Assembly: GCF_040954835.1 (NCBI RefSeq)
Contig: NC_090716.1
Coordinates: 12,647,275-12,711,274, forward strand
Direction of reading: 5' to 3'
Source of the DNA: Lepisosteus oculatus
Taxonomy: Eukaryota > Chordata > Actinopteri > Semionotiformes > Lepisosteidae
DNA: 64,000 bases
A program made the position numbers and the translations under genes. Positions 276 to 63,200 of the stretch are shown one piece after another. Position 1 is the first letter of the stretch. Each line of letters opens with the position of its first letter. A model generated the notes under the pieces. It was not told the DNA's origin. It was given only the letters and a program-made list of their open reading frames with translations, and ran no database searches.

Positions 276-9615
<9,340 letters not shown>

Positions 9616-20357: not shown

Positions 20358-20785
20358 TCACACTCTCTTCCTGGGGCGATCCTCATCCTGGCACTCTACA
20401 GCCGACAGGGCAATAAGCATCTGTGCAGCGTAGTAAGTGGCCATGATGATGGCGCGGGAGTGAGGCACCGGGAAGCAGAACTTATTGACGGCAATGGTGA
20501 GGTCTGATACCATGAAGAGGACGGCCCCGAGACAGGCGGAGAGCTTCGTCCAGGTCCAGAGGTCGTCGGACAGCTGCACCCCGGCGATGGCCCTCCAGCC
20601 CATGAAGCCAATGAGCCCGATGTAGACGGCTACCAAGTACGTGAAGGGCCCAGCCAGATAGGAATAGAGCAAGGCATAGCAGAGCCCAGACGCCGCTGCA
20701 ATGACCAGACCGGCCCACAGATTCAGGGGCTTCATGCCGAAGGCTGACGAATACAGAATATGAGTGATGGCAAACATCAGCAGCC
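20358..20785 (-). CDS. tmem86a: tmem86a last coding exon with stop
   Basis: Acceptor CTCGCAG on the minus strand; GLLMFAITH onwards, 142 residues to TGA. It holds the remaining membrane segments and the VSDLTIA motif, and ends in a basic tail (RPRKRV). Confidence 0.95.
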
Positions 20786-34983: not shown

Positions 34984-37900
34984 GTAAGCGACAACTTTTT
35001 TTAAAATCGTCTGAACCTTAAAACTTATCAAATGTATCCATACGGCGAAGTATGCTACCCATAGTGGTCATCCAAAACAAAATTCTAAAGACAAGATTTT
35101 TTTATTGCATTTAGTATAGTTTTGTACATTTTTGTGGTCTGGGGATATGGCGAGCATGAACTTATAAAACACTCGGTTTTAAAACCCGTAATACACGCCA
35201 TCTGTTATTTCAGCCCACTTCATCTTTCTGCTTCCGGTTTCCGTGCCCACTTCCGCCGACGTGATTTAAACCGCTGTTCCGGCGTGCTGCTCGTGTGGCT
35301 CCTGTACCCTTTCTGTAAAATCATCCCCAAGTTAATATCGATTGTTTGTATGTTCGCGCTTCAGTTTCCCCATTCACGCTTCGTTCAGGCGCAGTTCGAG
35401 AGTGCTGGAAACGCTGCGTTAGAGAATGTGGTTCTCTTCCGACCAAGTTAGAAGACAAGTTTTTCTGTGAATATTATGTAACCCTCTTGTCGTAAATGTT
35501 GCAGGCTGCCTGGCATTGGTTGGTGTTAACTCCCAATTATGGGTTCTTTTAAAAATGTTAACTGTGAGGGAATCATTGTACTGATTTTTTTCTTCATTGA
35601 GCATCAGTTTAGTACTCCAGTGCACTGAGACATAACAATTCTCAGTGTTTTGAGGAGTTACGAGGCAAGATAGTATTGGACATTTCTTTAAACAAGCACA
35701 CACTATTGTATCAGGGCCTGCACTCATAATTTGGGGGTTATTCAACCAAATAAACACCCGAAGTATTGTTGTTGAATAGGTAATACTAAATACTTAAATG
35801 TAGGCCTGTTTTTGTAGTCAGTGTAAGATACGTTTTTAATCTTTTCTATTGCAGGATGTCAGGGTTGCTTTCCCACACACATTTTATGTCTGCTTTTTTA
35901 TTTTTCTTAAAATCAAAGCTCTTATTTTTAGTTTCCCCTGGTAGCTTTAGTGGATCTTTACCAATAATGCCCCAAGAAGGGAATCTAGTTCCATGGCCAA
36001 TTTTACCTATAATAATGCCAATTCCAATTGTGCTTATGTAATTATATATATTCTCATTATCATTTAAATCGCTTTAGTGGACGAGGATATGCAGAACAGA
36101 GGTTTTAATACATGACCACACAGACATTTAAAAGCGTACAAACACTCTAGTACAAGCTTCTCAAAAAAAGATATAATACGTCATATTATACATTGCATCG
36201 TTACTTCAAAGATTGTTTGCAGCTCAATAATGAGCAAGAAATTAAGAATGAAAATCTAGAATTTGTTTACAAAAATCTCCAACTCCTCAACTGATGCATT
36301 GCATTTAGAACATGTTAGTTACTTTTAAATGAATTACCCAATTATTGCAGTCCCATTGTTTTAGTACAACAGCTTTTTAAAGTATTTTGGACAGATCTAG
36401 TTTTGGCCCTTAGTGAGACTGAGGAAAGATGGCTCAATGGGAACCTTGAATAACGTATCTGCAAAGAATATGAGTAAAACACTGCCCTCTGACCATCACA
36501 TTCCTGAGGGTAGGATGATTGCTGCTTGTGCTGCGGAGTCGGAAATAGCAGTCTAAACAACACAAGTTTGCACACATCTAACGCCCTTTGGAAATGGAAA
36601 TGCATCAGGTCTCTCACTACTGATACACTTGAACAGTTGGCATTTATTTTCTTCATTCAAAATAATATTTATTTCCTTTCCCTACAAACATCATGGTGAA
36701 AATGAAGATTTTTCTTGACTACAAAAGCTCAGATAAACAGAACTGCCAAATTGTCAGCATCATTTGTACTGAAATCGTGTGATGGACCTGTAGCCTTTTA
36801 GCAGTTTCAAAGGAGGCACAGCAGCAGGTGTTCAATTGAGGGCTGCGAACAACTGTTGAAGTAGAAACAAAGAAACAGAACTGCACCCCCAGCTCTCTCA
36901 CAAACCTACAGTAATGAAATGACTGTACCTCACTGCTGCATGTCTTGAGCACAGTAGGGCTGCACCAGCTGTTATAGAGCCTATATAAGCAACAGGGCAT
37001 TGGAGACAGGCAAAATCAGGAAAAATAAGCAGTGTGCGACAATACAAAATGAAATAATAGTGAAAAGAAGACAGCGTGATGCATATCTCCCTATATTATA
37101 TCCAGTGGTACATTGTGTAATGTGAAGGTAAGCACAGGTTTCTCTATAATGAGGCGTACTGAAGTCAAAAGCTTCAACACACCTTTAAGGACTGAATGTA
37201 ATGGTTGCTGGATTCTCTGTAAATGATTGAGGTTTTCTGGTTGAGTAACATAAGTTTCCTCAATATGTCAACAGTAGTGTTTGGATCAAGCCTCAAAATG
37301 GAGTAAGTGTGTGCTTTGTGAATCACTTTTATAACTCAACACTTTGTTTTGTTTAGTCATCCCTTCACAGCAGAATTCATGAAAACATGAAGGATTTAAA
37401 CGTGGGAGTGTTGGTTTGTTTTTTTTTCATCAATTTATATTTTCTATGTCACATGTACAATTTGAAACATAACAATGACGGATTGTTTTAATTTTCGTGT
37501 TTCCACAGTGGTGAAAATGTGTAGACTTTGAACTTGTTCTCGGTAGCTGTGGCTCATGCATATCATAATATCGACTCGAGTGTAACTTAAGCACTGCATG
37601 CATTTCTGCTTCAAGCAGAAGCGGTATAGCCTGGTGGCGGGACCTCCGAAGAAGGACCCGAAAGTCAAAGGAGTACAGTCCACAGCTGTGCAGGCCTTCT
37701 TGAAGAGGAAGGAAATGGAGGAGAGAAGGAAAGGTAATGCTTTGGTAAACGAGACACTAGACCTTTAGTCTTTGGTCCATGCTCCTTTTTGGGTGTGTGT
37801 TTTTTAGAATTAACCTCTAGTCCGGCACAAAGTGAAAGGTTGCTTCCTGAATGTTCTTCCTGGTGTTGTAGGAGAACAGCACATGCAGTACACTTTGCAT

Positions 37901-40900
37901 TCATAATAATTTCTAAAAAAGACCTTTTCAATTGTGATCCTTCCTCTGGTGTCAGAAGTTCATGCATCTTTCTTTAGCAGTAATACAACCACAGAGGAAG
38001 AAGCCTCTTGAAACTGCCACGTGGGTGAGGAAGCGTTTGTTGTAGAACTTGACTCAACTGTCTGGTATGAATTTGCCTTGCAGAGCTGGAGAACAAGCGA
38101 AAGAAGGAGGAACTGCTGGCTAAGAGAGTGGAACTGAAGTCAGATCGCAAGGCACGTGCCATGGCATCTCGCACCAAGGACAATTTTAAAGGCTACAACG
38201 GCGTCCCCGTGGTGGAGCAGCCCAGGAAGAGGCGGTCGCGAGCGGAGGTCGACGAGGAAGAGCAACAGGGCAGGGCGCGTGGCGAAATCAGTGACGACGA
38301 TGAGGACAACTATGAATATTCCCAAACGGATTCTGAAGAAGAAGAAAAAGAAGAAGAAGAAAAAAGAGATCTTCGCAACGAACCTCCAAGCAAAATGCCC
38401 GCCAGACCCAACAAGAAACCCTCTGCCCCAGCCAAGCCCACTTCATCTCCCATGAACTTTGCAGAACTCTTGAAACTGGCGCAGAAGAAACAGTTTGAAC
38501 CAGTCGAGCTAAAACCTGCCAAAAAATCCGAAGAGAGGCTCCGGACTGCGGAGGAGCTAAAGGAATTGGAATTCCTTGAACGCAAGAATAAGAAATTGGA
38601 GAAAGGAAGGGAAGCCAAGGTGGACAGAGACACTAAGACTCAGCCAGTCTCCATAAAGAAAACCATACCAGAAAAGGATGCCAGAAATGTAAAGCCACAG
38701 AAGAGCTCATCAGAGAAGGTCCCCCCTAGTGGGATAAGTAAAAAGCCAAAACAGCCTTCATTCAGTGAACGACCTCATAATTCTGCCAAATCCTCTCAGG
38801 TAGACAGATCCAAACATGTAGCAAACAATTCCAATTCCTCAGGTGCCTCTAGTATGAAAATGTCTGTGAAACCCAGTTCTCAACCCTCGGCCAAAACATC
38901 TGTACCTAGGCCTTCCTCTGGTCAGAAACCTACTGCCACCAGTGACCATAACCAGATGAGAGGGAGCCCTTTCTCATCTCCTGGGAAGACGGGCGGTTCA
39001 CTGGCGCGCCCTGGGCTCAGTTCCAGCTCTGCTGCTGCACGGCCTTCTAGCGTGGGGCAGAGTAGGCCGGGAAGCAGCGCTCAGGCCAGAGCTGGCACTG
39101 GCACGAACAGCTCTGTTAAAACGGCAAGTGCGGGGCTTTCCCGACCTGGAAAGGGTTCGACGGGGCAACCTGGCGGTAGTGTGCCGCCCCGTCCAGCCAG
39201 CAATGGACAAATGCGGCCCGTTGGCGCTGGAGTACCCAAAACGGGGAGCAACCTGCAGTCACGACCAGGAAACGGCCCCCAGGTCCGTCCTGCTGCCGCT
39301 GGGCCTGGGCCTGGGCCTGGGCGACCTGGTGGCAGCATGCCTGGGCGACCCGGAAACAGCGTAGGTTCTGGTCCTGGTAGGCCCAAGTGCACAGTGGTGT
39401 CGGAAACCATTTCATCCAAAAACTTGGTCCCTCGACCCGGGACTGCCCCTAGATTTCCTCCAGGTCATAGGCCCATGATAAGACCGCCTGGTAAGTTTGC
39501 TTTTATACCCTACAAAATAATAATTGGCCACAGTCTGTCTGTAAAAAAAACTATTTTCTTTGTAGAATTTTAATATCTAATCTTTGTTACTTGTGCATAA
39601 ATCTCTTAACCATGTAAAGTCCAGAGTCTTCCCTACGGAAGTTTCCCTAAGGTTCGGAACTTGTCTTTTCAGCAACCACTTGTGTCGGGAACATATAACA
39701 AGAAAGATGAAGGTGTTGGGTCACCCTAGTTAGATCCCGATCCTCATAATGAATCAAGTGGTACAGAATATGATGTATTTCTTTGCTTCTTTCTGTTACC
39801 TCTAGAACAGCTGAAAATCCACGAGTCACAGTCTTAATTTATAATTGGCTGATATAAAAAGTGCTTTAATTGTTGTGATTATAGCTTTGTAAGCTGGTAC
39901 AGAGGACATCAACGTAAAAGAGGCCCTGTTTATCCAGTTAACCAATTAAATCTTTCAAAACCCTTAATTTCTACTTATCTTTCCTTGAGTGAATAAGATA
40001 CATTTTGTGCTTAAGTATAAGACAAAAGTTCTATATTATTTTCACTGCTTGCATAGCTTGTATACTTCTAGGCTTGCTAAATAAAGCATGCCGTGAAACA
40101 GTCCAAAATTGTCCCAAGGGTAAGAATCCATAGAATGACGGCACTTGAGAGGCAAAACAGGCACTCAAAAGCTGATTGAGTGAATTTTTACTGATGGTTT
40201 CATCTTGTCAATTTGCTTTTCTTTCTTTCGTTACTAAGGCCTCACTGGCACTAAATCTCAGAGACAGCGATACATTTGAATAAGCAGCTTTTTACCTATT
40301 TTCAGTAGTGGATTTTTTCCATTCTAGAAAATGTGATATTAAAAAACAAATACTTAAATAGGTCTCCAGAATGCAGTTTATGTTTATAACATAATACTAA
40401 TTTAACATAATATTTGCACATTTAAGGAATTACCGATTCTTCAATTTTCTAAGAGCCTATGTCACGTTTCAATGAATAGAAGGTGATGCGGTTGTTTTAA
40501 TTTCCCTTCAGGTCCTCCTTTGCCGCCAATCACTTCCAGCTACAAGCGCAGGTTTGATGATGTCAACGAGGAGGAGGAAGAGTATGACTCTGAAATGGAA
40601 GACTTCATTGAGGATGAAGGGGAGGATCAAGATGATATTTCAAAACATATCAGGGAAATCTTTGGATATGACAAGTCCAAGTACGTAAAAAGTGCTTTTT
40701 TTTTAGAAGTAGGTAATGGCAGCCTTTAAAAGACCGGGTTCAGAATGACTCTTTCCCATATCACATGGGCTCCTATTTACAAACATACCTACCAGTGAAT
40801 ATTGCACCACATTTTAAATCGAGCACAGAGCTTATACTGCTTGGGTTAAAAATGGGCCTTATTACTTAGATGGCAGGTGGAACTGCCACGAAAGTAACTT

Positions 40901-41873
40901 TGAATTGCACTTTCGATCTGAGAGGTGAGTTTGCCCCACATGCTTTGACCTTAATGAACAGTTGACATAAGAAGAGAGACCAGGTGCCCATTTACAGAAG
41001 TAATTGTTCCAGTATGATGCAGACCTTGTTTAACTGGTGGCACTCTGTCCACAGATACAGAGACGAGAGCGACTATGCACTGCGTTACATGGAGAGCAGT
41101 TGGAAGGACCAGCAGAAGGAGGAGGCTAGGAGGTAAGAGCCAGCACCTCTGTCCACATTCGAAAGGGAGAGAGGTAGCGGATGTCCTTTTCCTTACCTTG
41201 AGTTTTTTGATCCTGTGGCTTCGCTTTTGTGGATGCCTTCTGTGACCACTTGGGCTGGCAAGGCTTCTGTGAGCTGGCCGTGTCATTAAGCGAGAGGCAC
41301 TTCACTCCTCTGATCGGGACTAACTCTGTTGTTACGGCAGTGTGAGCTTTGGCCTATACAAAGTGCATAATGGCAGAGTAAAAAGTGGATGATTTTCGAT
41401 CTGTAGTTCTAAATCGGAACAGTTTTGAGCACCGTGTGTCAACTGCAGAAAAAAGAATCGCATGCTCCGCTGGTATGCTGAATTTTTTTAACACTGAAGT
41501 TTGCCGCATAGGGTTTTCGAACTACCATGCCACTCAGATTTGTTTCTGCCTTTTTCTCCCCCTCCACTAGCCTGAAATTGGCTGTAATAGAGGATCAGGA
41601 AGAGATGCGTCGAGAGGAAGAAGAGCTTAAGAGGAAAATGGCCAAGAGACAAAAAACGAGATAACGCCGTTAATCGGACCCGCGCACCTCGTGTTCGCCT
41701 CCACCCCACCCCCCATCATTCCTGAGTGCTCAGCCACTTGTTCACCCTAACCAGCCTTGTGTCTCTTTTCTAGTTTACGTTTGGGTATCAAGGAGGATGA
41801 GGAGGATATGCTGAAGGAGCAAGAGGAGATGAAAAGGAAAATGGCAATGAACTCAAAACGGAGGAAACATTAA
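34924..41873 (+). CDS. spty2d1: SPTY2D1, SPT2-family histone chaperone (with two alternative last exons)
   Basis: Exons 34924-34983, 37619-37733, 38084-39490, 40512-40680 and 41055-41132, then either 41571-41664 or 41774-41873, give 640 or 642 residues. SPT2 proteins bind histones H3-H4 and act in transcription-coupled chromatin and rDNA transcription in the nucleus. Landmarks are KRYSLVAGPPKKDPKVKGVQ near the N-terminus, KARAMASRTKDNFKGYNG, and an acidic GAA-coded run near 38,330. A long Ser/Pro/Gly-rich disordered middle follows. The C-terminal SPT2 domain has RRFDDVNEEEEEYDSEMEDF and HIREIFGYDKSKYRDESDYA. The start is set by ACCATGG and the family N-terminus. For exon 2, using the CAG acceptor at 37,616-37,618 avoids a duplicated Gln. 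Confidence 0.95.
34984..37618 (+). other. spty2d1 intron 1
   Basis: About 2.6 kb with no exon seen. The first 400 nt stay GC-richer (TTCCGG/CTTCCGCC motifs at 35,230-35,260) and may be part of the promoter region. Confidence 0.6.
37619..37733 (+). CDS. spty2d1: spty2d1 coding exon 2
   Basis: Starts KRYSLVAGPPKKDPKVKG, the most conserved N-terminal block, and ends in phase 1 at AAAG|gtaatg. An alternative acceptor three bases upstream (37,613-37,615, aag) would add one Gln. Confidence 0.92.
38084..39490 (+). CDS. spty2d1: spty2d1 large exon 3
   Basis: 1,407 nt, phase 1 in and out. A basic coiled-coil-like start (ELENKRKKEELLAKRVELK) leads to an acidic Glu-rich run, a Lys/Glu-rich segment, then a disordered Ser/Pro/Gly/Arg region with repeated RPG/GRP and a (GP)n stretch at 39,301-39,321. 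A large central exon is typical of the gene. Confidence 0.95.
39491..40511 (+). other. spty2d1 intron 3
   Basis: About 1 kb of AT-rich sequence. No exon or repeat recognised. Confidence 0.6.
40512..40680 (+). CDS. spty2d1: spty2d1 exon 4 (start of SPT2 domain)
   Basis: Acceptor tttcccttcag; GPPLPPITSSYKRRF, an acidic run and HIREIFGYDKSK. Leaves in phase 2 at gtacgt. The histone-binding SPT2 domain begins here. Confidence 0.94.
41055..41132 (+). CDS. spty2d1: spty2d1 exon 5 (SPT2 domain)
   Basis: YRDESDYALRYMESSWKDQQ, phase 2 in and out (AG|gtaaga). Either of the two last exons can be joined in frame. Confidence 0.94.
41571..41664 (+). CDS. spty2d1: spty2d1 terminal exon, version A
   Basis: A strong pyrimidine-rich acceptor (tttttctccccctccactag). 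30 residues from LKLAVIED through EEEELKRKMAK, then TAA at 41,662-41,664. No good donor follows the stop, so a transcript using it would carry version B inside its 3' UTR. Confidence 0.85.
41774..41873 (+). CDS. spty2d1: spty2d1 terminal exon, version B
   Basis: Acceptor gtctcttttctag. 32 residues, LRLGIKEDEEDM to KRRKH, TAA at 41,871-41,873. Same phase as version A and 16 of 30 aligned residues identical, so it arose by tandem exon duplication. LRLGI looks closer to the family C-terminus than version A, but this needs an alignment. Confidence 0.8.
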
Positions 41874-44800
41874 CGAGCTGAACATGGAGAGGCAGTCATA
41901 GCTCAGCATCGCTGCCTGCTTTCTTACATGGTTTCCAGCTGATTTCCAAGGACACACTTTTTAAGCTGAGCAAATTTGCACTACAGAGTCATTATTTCAA
42001 TTTTGAACTGTTGAACATAAAAAATCTATTTATCAGGATTTCCTTTTTTTTTTACAAATCTGGGACTTGTGCTGGTAGTACCGCTTTATTCTTTTATCGT
42101 TAACGGCTACATCTAATTTTTTTTTTCCCTAATGAAGAGAAAACTGTGTTCATGAAACTTTGTAGTGTTCAAGTTTTAATTATGAAAAATGTTAATATAA
42201 TTGTTGAATTAGAAAAAAATACATTATATTACCATTTGTTGTTAAAGTGTATTTCTTTCATGTTTTAAAAGTGACTCACAGTCTGCATTTTTTTGTTTTA
42301 TGGACTAAATTCTCTGGTATAAAAGCATATTTTCTAAACAACTGAGTACACTAAATCTGCAAAACAATATTTTTAGATTTAGAAGCCAAATTAACCCTTT
42401 GTAAAAGGTTTAAAATTTTGCTCTTTGTGTAACCCACTGTCATTGCACTGGAAAAAAGCAGAGAAAACTTATTTTTATCCAACTTTCATAAATCTCTATT
42501 TGGGGTGAAATAAGGACAAGAAAAATCTGTAATTGTTTTAGTTTTAAACTGTATAATTTGAGTTTAACTAATGCAATTCTACCTTCAAGATTTCCATTTA
42601 ATGGGAATATGTAAGCATTACTTAGGGAAATTGTTGGAACATTAATTTTACTAAATTATTTCTTATACTTAAGTCCCTTGACGTGGAATACCAATTCTTG
42701 AAAGACGTATTTAGAAGGAGAGTTTCATTCCCAGGCAACACCATGGCTCCATTTTCAGGTATTGATTGCGCTGTGAGTGCTACTGCTGTTAGGACTGTTG
42801 TATTCTCTCTTGCAAATGTGCCACACAGTGGCAGGAATATGGGAATCCTGTGGTACCAATATTAAAATATTTCTGCACTGTCAAATCAAAAGTTTGTTTT
42901 ATGGGGCTTTCACTCTTAAGTGTACAAAAACACACAGTTCACTGATACTTTAGAATTATGCATTTGTCAACTCTAAATTTACTGTTCATTGTTACAAAGC
43001 TACCCTTCCCCCCACTTGGTTTTTGTTGAGTAGATGAGATCTTCTCTCTTAAAAATGTGTAGGCTTCCTAAAATAGATTTGATTAGATCACCCAGATTTA
43101 CAGCCTGTTGTCATGGTAAATGCTGTAATGTCTTGATCTGAATGGGCAGGAGGCCTGTGCTTTTCTGTTTTTCCCCAATATAGAGGGGATGTTTACACTG
43201 ATATTTGACATTCATGATCTGTGATTAAAGAGTTTTACAGTAATTACGTCTAAGGCATGAGGGTGGGTCAGTATTTGATTGACTATAAGTACAAGGTGTT
43301 TGTTTTCCTTTTCAATGTAGTAGTAGCTTTTTTTCCCATGAAATGCCAAGGTTGTATAATAATACCTGCAATACACATAACAGAAGTGAAAAAAGCACAG
43401 GAGACTGACCCAGTACACTGGGTTATAATTAACCCTAATTGAAAGCACTTGGTCCACAACTTCAAATTCTCTATGCCAGATACACTAAGTCAAATGAGAC
43501 TGCCTGTTGCACCAGGCCTTGGTGGACATCTTCAATCTTTCTATCTTCTGTGTGTTTTCCAATGGAGGTAAGGCTTCATATATTGAAGAGCATTGTAATT
43601 TCTTTAAGCCAACTCTGGAGGATAGGCTACTGTTTGACAAACTATTCCCAGCCCTGTTCACAAATGGCAACGCGTGTGTTTCAGAAAACAAAAGGCAGCA
43701 GCACATCTTTGTCAGCACTCCATTTTTAATCTTTAGTTTTTTTTTAAATCAAAATGGTATATCATACATGTGCTTCATGAATCGGCTCACCAGGTGATGT
43801 TCCCTGAATGGATGCCAGTCTGAGACTGGACAATGTGATTGGGGTTCTCCCAGTGGGAGTATGGTATCTGCTGAGGTCTGGGTGGCCTTGAGTCTACAAG
43901 GAAAGAACCACAGTAGCTCATTGGTCCTGAGCTGCCATCTTGGACCATGGATAGCACTGACATATCTCTACATGAAAATCTCCCACTGCCAGTTATACAG
44001 GTAAACACACGAATAAAGCTTTTTGAATATTTCCATGCACATCTGCATCTAAATATTAAGATCCATACATTTCAATTGCAGATGTCCTGGTAAGGATCAC
44101 AATTTACTGTACTAGTCCTTTCTCATTTTGGTTAGAGTAAGAGAGCAGGAGCATTTTCCCATGCTGGAATATGCAGTATATACTGTATATGACCTGCACT
44201 GTAGAGGTCATATTGTTTTAAAAGACATGACATTATTGGCCATCCAAAAGGGTGGAAATTTGCCGTTGGCATCACTATAAGAAAACTACACAAACAAGTA
44301 AGATAAATAAAGATGCATTTAAAACAATAGTACCAGACATGCAACAATGCATACTGTAGATCAGGTTGGTAGGTTGCAAAGGAACAGGTAGCGGGTTCAT
44401 TCCGTGCTGAAAGCGAAGAAAGGAAACAACGTTTCGGCCGTGGAGCCTTCTTCAGGTGTGAGCACTATGCAGTATGGAATGCATACACACATCTCGCTCT
44501 GCCCATACCGCATTATTATTACATGAATCCTGTAGTTTCATACAGGAAACAGTCACTTAGCTATGTTAAATATCCCGACTGCACAGGTAACAAGGTATTT
44601 AACAAGGTAGTTTTGTTGGCCGTAGCCATTTTAAGAAACGTGTTTCATTTTTTAATTATCTTTACAAGTACGTTTGTAAGTAATGAATAAAAAAAGTTGA
44701 AAGTTGAAAGTTCCAGATTGTGATGGATTTCTGACGGTGCAGAGTATAGATGACATCCTTCCAAGAAAGTGCAGCAGACTGTTGGATTACTTCAAGTCTG

Positions 44801-58713: not shown

Positions 58714-60275
58714 TTAAAACGTCACTGATTTTGGAACTTGGTGACCAGGAGCATGTGTCCGGTAAAAATCAGAGTCGGAATGTGTCACAGGGACGCCCGG
58801 AGGTCCTCTCTTTGCCAGAGCGTGTGGAGAACGTTTTGGAGCTGTTATTGCGGAAGGCGTCGGTCTCGGGAGCACATTAGAAGAAGCGCACTGGAAGTCC
58901 TTTGCCTCTCCTTCTTCCACAATAAAGAGGGTTCCAGCCTCCATGCAGCTCTCGGGGAGCTGGCGGTTATCCTGGATGGGCCTGGAGGGTCCCATTTGTT
59001 TCCCCAGACTGTGGCCCGTGCCAGGATCTCCCCATCCTGGGGGAGTGCCCTGGGGCGGCTGAAATGGGCGTAGTCTCTCACGGAACGGCGGGGCGGGCAG
59101 ATCCAGAGGATCGCCAGCGCCCTGTCGGTTTGGATCATCCGGCCCGAGAACCGCCAGGGAAGGAGAGTCTGAGTTGGCGGAAGGAGGCAGGGCAGCCTGC
59201 TTTGGAGGGAAGAAGGCCACGGGTGGGGGTGGGGGAGGAAACATCATGGGATCGTTGGACTCGGGAGGTACTGGAAGGCTTGAACTCCCCTCTGGAGGCT
59301 CAGGCGGTGTCAGCGCAGCCGCCGAGTCCGGCAACACATGCGGATACGGATCCTCTGCTCCCTCTTCCATGTTATCGTAGTGCGACGTGTTCGACGACCT
59401 CCTTTCCCCGGAGTGACCAGGCACTCCGAGGCTGCCCGGGAATCCTGTGGCGTCCACGTCGGCACATGAGGGGTCCTCAGATATCAGGAGGGGAGCGAGG
59501 TCTGGAGGCTTCGGCGGGACGCCTGGGCAAGGCATCTCGGCTTGAGGTACCTCTGCCTCCACGGAGGGGGTCGCGCAAGAGCGTCGTCCAGGCTGCACGT
59601 CTGGGGGGTCTGCGCAAAACTGAGGCAGGGGAGGAGGAGGGGGAGGAAGCGGCAGATGTTCTTCCAGGAGCTGCACAGGCAACGCGACGGGGTCTCCAGC
59701 CGTTTCGGGGGGTTCATACGGCGGCGGCCACTCACTGGGCTCCCCTTGCGGTTCACCGTCGGCTGCCTGGTCCTCCTCCTTCTCGTCTCCCACCGAGCCA
59801 CCTGCGCCTGCCGCCGGGAGAGCTCCTTTCGCCTCCAGCTGCCGTCTGGAAACAACACCTCCGTGCGGGCCAGGGAGATCTGCTCTGTTATCCGAACTTG
59901 TGTCCTTTCCCCCTGGAATTCTATCCGCAGTCTGAGGTATGGTGTTGACTGGTATTTGGATTCCGGAAGGACCTCTGTCTTCTGGGGTGTGGGGCCAGCT
60001 CCTGACTGGGGTTTTTACTTCATGACTGTGCACCATGACAGGACTGGGAGAGGGCAATGTCACATTTTCCCCATTAGGTGTTTTTGGGTCCCGTTCATGG
60101 AGTGGAGAAGGGCTTTTATCTGGCAGAACTGTCTCCTGCTCTCTGTCAGTTCTAAGGTCTACTGTCCCTGGTACAGTTTTGCTTTTGTCATTGGCAGCTT
60201 GGCAGGGTTTTACTGGTACAAGCAAAACTGGCAGTTCCTGGCCAAGGGGATTCTTTGGAAACTCTTCAGGTTTAG
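58714..60275 (-). CDS. usp6nl-like terminal exon, proline-rich disordered tail
   Basis: Acceptor TTGTTTCTAG, then [17 protein letters not shown]. 1,562 nt, GC-rich, coding for Pro/Ser/Glu-rich sequence. Visible motifs are WPPPYEPPE (PPxY WW-ligand, PPPY at 59,716-59,727), poly-Pro runs at about 59,620-59,655 and 59,215-59,245, and the C-terminus KSVTF. No PxxDY Eps8-type motif was seen. The frame stays open over 520 codons between AT-rich flanks. Confidence 0.9.
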
Positions 60276-63200
60276 CTAGAAACAAAAGACACATTGGTAA
60301 ATACAGAGCACCTCAAACCTTTTTCTAATTGTAACTGCAGGTCGCATTTCTAAAATAATTTTGCAGCTATATTCTTATAGTTGTTGCATTTTCATGTTTT
60401 AAATCCATTATTTAATGTCAAATCTCCCCCTGAGATAATGCTTCTGCATATACAGGGGTGAGTTGTCTCTGAACAGCCTATTACAAACTTTCTTAGAACG
60501 TAGACACCATTAGACATTCAAACCAACTTAAAAATGCTACTGTCTTACATCTATTTAGAAACAGTAATAATTAAACTCAATAACTGTGGCAGAACCTGGA
60601 GGAGGAAGATCAAGCTTCATTTTGCGTAGTTCTAACATGGATGCTTGGAGCTGCTCAATGACTGAGTCGTCATTTAAGCTGAAAGATCCTGCGATCTTCT
60701 CCTGTAGAAACTCCCGAAGATCTTCTAGCGACATTTTGAGTAAACGTTCTGAAAAATAACAAATGAAAAATATACCAAATTGAAGTATTTTTCCCATTTA
60801 TTTACAAAAGTGTTCTCTACTTTTAAAACTGCAGTTTTTTAAAGGCCGGATATTGAGTTTCGCGTCAAGGTACTTTGAGATTATTGAGATTAAACTTGTT
60901 GAAGTGAGGCCAAGGGGCTGGTGTGGTACTCACTCTTGTGCAGTTTGAGAATGGTGTAGGCCATGGCAGTCAGGATTTTCTCCCCTTCCAGGATATAGAT
61001 ATCCCATAAGCGCAGAGTCAGGGTGAATGGTGTCTGTTGTAAAAGAAAAATGATACTTGGTTAAGGATTAAGCTTCCAGTAGATGGAAAATGTGGTATGT
61101 GTTGAGAAGAAAACTAACAATATGCAATGAGCAGTCTTTCTGCAAAATGACAGCATAGTCTGTGTCTTAGGCAAAGTGGTGCTATAAACTCAAACTTTCT
61201 ATTTGTTTGAACTTCAGTCGGCAAATATATTGACTGCAATTCACTTGATGCTTGAGCACAGTGGCTGGATATCCCACATGCTCACAAGCACAGTCATACA
61301 GAAAAAAAAAATGTTTGGGATACTTTTTATTCAAGCTTCAGTATCTCTGCCAACTGTAACCCCTAGATTGCAACTTTGTAACTGAAGTCACTGAATTTTT
61401 TTCTGTTTATTGCCAACCTCATCGTAGTGCAATTGATTCTCTTAAAACTCTATTAGCCATTTAAAATTTCCTGTAGAGAAAAGGTTGTTTAGAGGAATAA
61501 AGATTCGACTCCTGTGCCTTATCTATACCCCTCTACTTAATATTGGACAGAGCCACCATGTAGTCATGCAAAGCCCTCTGCACTTCAAGCCCAGAAAACT
61601 GGAAAGGTCTCTGGATGCTGACAACAGCTCTTCTTTGCCTCCACCACCAAAACCACTGGATTTAATGTAACTATGCTAGAAAACCAAGGAGCAACCATGG
61701 TAACCTCTCTAATCATCCAGCAGTTCATTCAAACACCAGAAGACTGCAGTCCCCCTGAGTATGGGGACCTAAACAGGGCATCCTGTACATCAGGGGTGTT
61801 CAACCCTGGTCCTGCAGAGCCCTAGTCCAGGTGCTCTTATAGCTCTTATAGTTTTTAAAGGTGGGCAGCACCTGTAAGATTTCGATGAAATAAAACAAGT
61901 AATGTGTTCAAATGAAATCTACTCTAGTCACTGAGGGCAGAAGAGAAAGAGTTTAGTCCACAATTTTCTCTTAATTACTTAATTTAATAAAACATCTGTT
62001 AAGCTTACCATCATAGAATTATACATATCTCACCATTAAATCACCGTATAGACATTGGTGATTTAATGGTGAACTACAAAATCTCTTGGATTGTGGTTCT
62101 TCAGGCCAAGGGCTTGAGATTTCTGCTGTACAGCAGATCCTATGACATGCATTCCACTCATGAGTCTAGTACTATATACTGAAGTACAAGAACATAGAAT
62201 ATACACTGTTCTTGTACTGAAGTACAAGAACAAGAACCAAACCAGCTCTGAATTCTGTTCACTCACATTTTATGTAACGCCAGTATTGAAAGTATCTAAT
62301 TCTAAAGTCAGAGCACAGGATGGGCAAAATAATCATTGTATGCATTTCTCTTTAAATTAACTTTGCTATTTTTTTTACTGGTGTAAAACACCACAAACAT
62401 CTGACACATTAATTATTTTAGCCTGTGGTCAACACGTGATGCAATGGTTTAGCATCTACATCAGCCAACAAAGACAAGAACAAACAATATAAATTCACAG
62501 AATTTTCTGCTCTTGATTTCTGAGGAAAGAAAATGTTTCAGTTAAAGAGTTTTTGTTCACATTCTTTATCAATAAAAATAATCCCTACAACAATAACTTC
62601 ATTACAGCTCCTACAGTATTTTGCACTTCGGGGTGTTTCTGGAGTTTTTAATATGTTTGTCAAAGAGGCTGGAAAGCCTGAGGGCATCAGTGAGGATGCA
62701 ACTTGGGAAATTCTTCAGAGAATCTTAAGGAATTCCCCAAAGAAGTATGCGTCACATTAAAGGAATCTAATGCTTAAAAGAAATGTATCTCCTAATAAAG
62801 CATTGTTGAAGGTAAAGACAGCATCTCAATGACAAAAAATGCTTATTATGTTTTAACAGCCTCTGTTGTTAGTTGCTGCCAAGTACGATATCACCATTGT
62901 GGTTTTTGTACAGACTAGGGCTCCTGGGAAATTCCTGCCTCTCCAGAGCCCTGTTCCCACCCTGACATCATGAGAACATGTTGCTGCTTTAGTATGCCAT
63001 GTGTGAGTGAGTGCTACATGAGCTTTCTCTAACAAACATCACCTCTCATCTGTTACACAGGGACTGCTGTGGTTAGGTGAGACGCGTTGGCATTCTCTTC
63101 ACAGCACATGGAGGGCACTGATGGCAGTTTTGAGCTTCCTGTGCACTGCTGTTGATTACATTTTTGAGACAGGTATTTTGTTTGATCTCAGGTGAAGTCT

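What the first reader, a model, noticed from the sequence alone, without database searches (positions are those of the whole stretch)
41571..41873. Tandem duplicated terminal exon in spty2d1, giving two possible C-termini
Two successive segments each have a good acceptor (pyrimidine tract then AG), the same entry phase (2), about 30 codons and a stop. Aligned without gaps, 16 of 30 residues are identical (shared E-D, M, KRKMA, K and R positions), so they are homologous. The first has no donor after its stop, so choice of 3' splice site would decide the C-terminus, and the A form would carry B as 3' UTR. The end of the SPT2 domain binds histones, so this could tune chaperone activity.
Basis: partly seen in the sequence, partly recalled or inferred. 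Interest (0 to 1): 0.7.

Follow-up and report, generated by a model that had tools for sequence, protein, structure and literature searches.

The report
Two alternative tails for SPT2 chaperone
In this vertebrate the gene for the histone chaperone SPT2 carries two side-by-side versions of its last coding exon, both apparently kept by selection, so splicing could give the protein either of two related tails; swaps of this kind are known in many other genes.

Summary
After the exon ending at 41132 (phase 2) lie two complete terminal coding segments: A (41571-41664) and B (41774-41873). Both start at strong acceptors and end in TAA. Their peptides match each other at 17 of 31 positions, and the human SPT2 C-terminus gap-free at 19 and 18 of 31. 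In 127,816 translated windows they are by far the two best matches to the human tail. Each adds bits to the Pfam SPT2 profile (80 and 73, against 51.5 without a tail). Synonymous sites between A and B are saturated (pS 0.77) while pN is 0.26, so this is an old duplication with protein-level constraint on both copies. A has no donor-like site, and none of four poly(A) hexamers lies between A and B. Best reading: alternative 3' splice-site choice giving two C-termini, with B as 3' UTR of the A form. The functional idea is weaker: the human residues named as needed for histone binding (M641, E651, E652) are encoded by the preceding exon. No RNA or relatives could be examined. C-terminal tandem-exon swaps are common in human (77 of 236 catalogued), so this is a new member of a known kind.

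The parts
37619..37733 (+). spty2d1 coding exon (KRYSLVAGPPKKDPKVKG...); exact start uncertain; the exon before it was not located
   Evidence: splice model; donor AAG|GTAATG
38084..39490 (+). large central coding exon
40512..40680 (+). coding exon with the start of the SPT2 domain (EYDSEMEDFIEDEG...)
41055..41132 (+). coding exon with the positions of human M641, E651 and E652; shared by both forms; donor GAG|GTAAGA
41571..41664 (+). terminal segment A: tail SLKLAVIEDQEEMRREEEELKRKMAKRQKTR (first Ser split with the upstream exon), stop TAA 41662-41664
41665..41773 (+). spacer between A stop and B acceptor; holds a branch-point-like CTAAC (A at 41750) and none of the four poly(A) hexamers searched
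41774..41873 (+). terminal segment B: tail SLRLGIKEDEEDMLKEQEEMKRKMAMNSKRRKH (first Ser split with the upstream exon), stop TAA 41871-41873; 3' UTR in the A form

Best explanation
This is an old tandem duplication of the last coding exon of spty2d1 (SPT2, an H3-H4 chaperone). From one donor at 41132 the spliceosome joins either the near acceptor (41570/41571) or the far one (41773/41774). The near choice gives tail A, with B carried untranslated in the same last exon. The far choice removes A as intron and gives tail B. Both messages probably end in the same 3' region, and neither should have a junction downstream of its stop, so neither should trigger nonsense-mediated decay. Both proteins keep the named histone-contact residues and differ only beyond them, in the positions of human 655-685. 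I expect fine-tuning (partner, nuclear retention, DNA or histone affinity, or regulation at B Ser28 or A Thr30 of the tail), not an on/off switch. Shown here: homology, intact phase, strong acceptors, lack of a donor-like site in A, constraint on both copies. Inferred: use of both sites, shared 3' end, escape from decay, tissue regulation, functional difference.
For: Both tails align gap-free to the human SPT2 C-terminus. Each raises the PF08243 score, from 51.5 bits without a tail to 80 (A) and 73 (B). Synonymous sites are saturated, pS 0.77 against pN 0.26, with 12.5 of 16.2 synonymous and 19.5 of 73.8 nonsynonymous sites different; Fisher P is 0.0009 or 0.00005 depending on how the half-counts are rounded. 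Simulated neutral drift, started from the present sequences, keeps A open with a human-like score in 0 of 4,000 trials at each of d = 0.4, 0.6, 0.8 and 1.0 and in 0.3% at 0.2; B in 0 of 5,000 at 0.5 and 1.0, 0.02% at 0.3, 0.12% at 0.2 and 2% at 0.1. The 100 bases upstream of the two acceptors match at 27% (50% in the last 20, both being pyrimidine tracts), 60 bases after the stops at 33%, and no repeat found at DNA level links the two copies. The two acceptors are the best of 41133-41900. B has CTAAC 23 bases upstream, and A a 90% pyrimidine tract. No second SPT2 locus or processed copy showed up in the genome (best candidates only).
Against: No RNA evidence of either junction. No relative's sequence was available beyond the human protein in the PDB; genome contigs and viral-contig scans found none. 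A alone matches Pfam SPT2 (18.4 bits, E 0.0033), as the human tail does (17.3), but B alone gave no match at E<=10, so B is the more diverged copy by that measure. No yUnAy branch point was found within 60 bases of the A acceptor; the only one in 110 bases is 79 away. The dN/dS test rests on 30 codons and 16 synonymous sites. Constraint averaged over the whole history cannot exclude that one copy died recently.
Confidence: 0.77

Rival explanations
1. Only one copy is used today. The other is a recently silenced relic that still looks intact: either A is skipped intron, or B is now only 3' UTR.
For: No expression data. B is the weaker Pfam match. A lacks a consensus branch point near its acceptor. 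A neutral copy of B could keep its looks over a short time: 2% at d = 0.1.
Against: Both frames, both stops, both acceptors and about 60% identity to the human tail survive although A-B synonymous sites are saturated; long neutrality of either copy is rejected by simulation.
Confidence: 0.18
2. B's acceptor is used as the standard one and the A site is a regulatory device that changes the 3' UTR or mRNA level, its peptide being of no importance.
For: The A form necessarily starts its 3' UTR with the 109-base spacer and the 100 bases of B (coordinates).
Against: The A peptide is conserved against human at least as well as B (19 against 18 of 31) and fits the SPT2 profile better, which a regulatory-only site would not need.
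Confidence: 0.04
3. Chance likeness of lysine- and glutamate-rich coding stretches.
For: Both tails are rich in K, R and E.
Against: Shuffles: 0 of 100,000 reach the A-B score. Best unrelated window in 127,816 scores 24 against 93 and 90.
Confidence: 0.01

Closest known systems
Tandem duplicated exon substitution events with C-terminal swap (human catalogue, PMC9741552, passages seen)
   Same: Neighbouring homologous exons replace one another, here the last coding exon. 77 of 236 human events are C-terminal swaps, changes are mostly conservative, and most are ancient.
   Different: SPT2 or SPTY2D1 is not named in that main text (its supplements were not seen). Expression of both forms is not shown here. 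The A form's last exon would contain B, with none of four poly(A) hexamers between them.
Tropomyosin duplicated 3' exons (TPM1, Tm1, lev-11; PMC9741552 passage)
   Same: Homologous tandem 3' exons give alternative homologous C-termini.
   Different: Three copies there against two here; unrelated gene.
Drosophila PGRP-LC 3' variable regions, controlled by competing RNA structures (PMC9013439 passage)
   Same: Choice among alternative 3' regions in which a proximal 3' splice site can be activated.
   Different: The pairing found here (A exon with B acceptor) is not stronger than in synonymous recodings, so no such mechanism is supported.
Human SPT2 (SPTY2D1) histone-binding domain, PDB 5BS7/5BSA
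   Same: The window's domain aligns over its full length with either tail.
   Different: The human chains in the PDB show one tail; whether the human gene has a second copy was not tested.

Membership tests
SPT2 family (PF08243) | Match to the SPT2 profile above the curated cut-off (24 bits) | tested here: met
   A form 80.0, B form 73.0 bits
SPT2 family (PF08243) | Histone-contact residues of human M641, E651 and E652 present | tested here: met
   M45, E55 and E56 of the aligned domain are invariant with 5BS7; residue names from PMC7615752; numbering taken from the 115-residue chain being 571-685, the range that paper gives for its human domain
Tandem duplicated exon substitution event | Adjacent homologous exons in the same phase | tested here: met
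   17 of 31 identical, both phase 2, 203 bases start to start
Tandem duplicated exon substitution event | The two exons cannot both be translated in one message | tested here: met
   A ends in TAA and has no donor-like site (donor matrix recalled)
Tandem duplicated exon substitution event | Both isoforms made as RNA or protein | not testable with these tools
   no transcript or proteome data on hand
Tandem duplicated exon substitution event | Conservation of both copies in related species | tested here: inconclusive
   Searches found no relatives in collections that are bacterial, archaeal and viral; only a within-genome test was possible
Splicing controlled by competing RNA structures | Special base pairing that masks one acceptor | tested here: not met
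   88.5% of 1,000 synonymous recodings of A pair at least as well with the B acceptor; B exon with A acceptor: 28.5% of 1,000

The most novel reading that the evidence does not exclude
The duplication is as old as the split between ray-finned fishes and tetrapods or older, and many fishes keep a tissue-regulated pair of SPT2 tails that tetrapods lost, so that H3-H4 chaperoning is tuned by splicing beyond the mapped contacts. The near-star pattern of shared residues (A with human 5, B with human 4, A with B 3 positions) does not exclude this.
Probability: 0.25. Interest if true: 0.5.

Novelty: new member of a known kind. Interest (0 to 1): 0.36.

Why it matters
If both forms are made, a histone chaperone whose main recent metazoan study does not use the word isoform (PMC7615752 main text, 0 occurrences) has two conserved C-terminal versions in this lineage. 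That offers a natural experiment on what the end of the SPT2 domain does beyond the named histone contacts. The genomic pattern itself (C-terminal swap by duplicated terminal exon) is well known.

Tried and rejected
Relatives: scans of genome contigs (54 pattern matches) and viral contigs (32 pattern matches) gave none that encodes a relative; these collections are not expected to hold vertebrates.

Competing RNA structure: the inverted-repeat search gave 6 pairs, one of which joins A-exon bases 41635-41654 to the B acceptor. The best A exon:B acceptor duplex is weaker than the mean of synonymous recodings (-19.2 against -23.1; 88.5% of 1,000 as good or better); B exon with A acceptor is also unremarkable (28.5% of 1,000). 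Rejected.

Splicing-factor motifs: one GCATG at 41460 and one ACTAA at 41319. Single copies of such short words are expected by chance in 768 bases; no claim made.

Processed copy as evidence of the spliced form: none seen. The search with the full protein did not complete.

Order of descent (which copy is the orthologue of the human tail): shared residues 5:4:3, undecided. Structure prediction was not tried, because its stated rule takes only proteins read letter for letter from the DNA and this protein is spliced.

Literature: SPTY2D1 with exon duplication, 0 papers; SPTY2D1 with alternative splicing and zebrafish, 1 paper listed, not read. One search lists 30 of 67 papers with SPTY2D1; one search lists 25 of 262, one search lists 11 of 11, one search lists 1, one search lists 10 of 44. 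Of these I saw passages of five: PMC8563012, PMC7615752, PMC9013439, PMC9741552 and PMC5740500. All within an open-licence library only.

The acceptor and donor matrices and the branch-point rule are approximate values recalled from the literature, not derived here. The scrambled tails were made by hand and only roughly keep composition.

Full report
Observation. The gene model reads through exons 37619-37733, 38084-39490, 40512-40680 and 41055-41132, all in frame; the exon(s) before 37619 were not located. The exon ending at 41132 leaves phase 2. Joined to 41571 it gives a 31-residue tail ending at TAA 41662-41664; joined to 41774 it gives a 33-residue tail ending at TAA 41871-41873. The finding's coordinates and its 16-of-30 identity are correct (17 of 31 with the split Ser codon).

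Identity of the gene. With either tail the domain matches human SPT2 in PDB 5BS7 (E 6.8e-38 with A, 2.2e-37 with B) from its first residue to the human C-terminus, and Pfam PF08243 (80.0 and 73.0 bits, 51.5 without a tail). The genome (1.2 Gb, 813 contigs, unnamed) shows one SPT2 locus: of 3 candidates scored, the profile search kept 1 match, in this gene, and a 91-residue protein query gave 4 matches of 4 candidates, all exons of this gene. In that last search tail A came up as the only other match to tail B (52% identity, E 0.045). Both searches score only the best candidates. No processed copy was seen, so none can tell which tail is in mRNA.

More than chance. In a gap-free scan of 127,816 windows on both strands, the human tail scores 93 with A and 90 with B; the best unrelated window scores 24. 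No shuffle out of 100,000 reached the A-B score. Identities are A-human 19, B-human 18, A-B 17 of 31. A alone hits PF08243 at 18.4 bits and the human tail alone at 17.3, whereas B alone and two hand-scrambled tails gave nothing at E up to 10.

Age and selection. The copies differ at 12.5 of 16.2 synonymous sites (pS 0.77, saturated, so dS is not finite) but only 19.5 of 73.8 nonsynonymous sites (pN 0.26) (Fisher P 0.0009 or 0.00005 depending on rounding). Sequence around the copies is unalike: 27% over 100 bases upstream, 50% in the last 20 where both are pyrimidine tracts, 33% over 60 bases after the stops; no linking repeat was found. Simulated neutral drift destroys the human-like frame of either copy long before saturation. 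So for most of the time since the duplication both copies were held at the protein level. This is an average: it cannot exclude recent loss of one. It rests on 30 codons, and no orthologous DNA could be obtained.

Splicing anatomy. The A and B acceptors are the two best of the stretch 41133-41900 and lie at the 99.5 and 99.4 percentile of AGs in the window (matrix recalled). A has a 90% pyrimidine tract but no yUnAy branch point within 60 bases; B has CTAAC 23 bases upstream and a 76% tract. No GT from 41571 to 41773 resembles a donor. Among the hexamers AATAAA, ATTAAA, AGTAAA and TATAAA the first after 41571 lies at 42318, so the two forms probably share their 3' end. Neither form has an expected junction after its stop, so decay by the junction rule is not expected (inference). 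A search for controlling RNA pairing gave a candidate that was no better than synonymous recodings.

What the swap would do. PMC7615752 (passages) names human M641, E651 and E652 as contributing to or required for H3-H4 binding. By alignment these fall in the shared exon; the alternative part starts at human 655. Both tails have an acidic first part (net -5 over 19 residues) and a basic end (+7), as in human (-5, +8). So the swap should keep chaperone activity and change finer properties. I could not read the crystal-structure paper.

Comparison. In the human catalogue of 236 tandem duplicated exon substitutions, 77 are C-terminal swaps, changes are mostly conservative, close to two thirds were present in the vertebrate ancestor, and SPT2 or SPTY2D1 is not named in the main text (PMC9741552, passages). 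Tropomyosins are a classic case (same passages). SPTY2D1 is also not named in the main text of PMC5740500, but that study keeps terminal exons apart in an appendix that I did not see. Hence: a new member of a known kind, well supported at sequence level, unproven at RNA level.

Noticed in passing
20358-20777 (-) and 515-9307 (+): A YhhN-family frame (Pfam PF07947), probably TMEM86A, and upstream a series of frames that look immunoglobulin- or fibronectin-like by eye (one tested: I-set by Pfam). This agrees with a vertebrate gene order around SPTY2D1 that I recall (IGSF22, TMEM86A, SPTY2D1, UEVLD). Two downstream fragments thought to be UEVLD gave no Pfam match.
   Followed up: partly
41635-41654 and 41757-41776: The end of the A exon is partly complementary to the B pyrimidine tract and acceptor; not better than synonymous recodings.
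   Followed up: yes
about 44420-44460: A stretch (GAAACAACGTTTCGGCCGTGGAGCCTTCTTCAGGTG) that reminds me of a dispersed repeat; impression only.
   Followed up: no
58714-60294 (-): A 526-residue open frame, proline-rich by eye, on the minus strand downstream of the gene, not identified.
   Followed up: no
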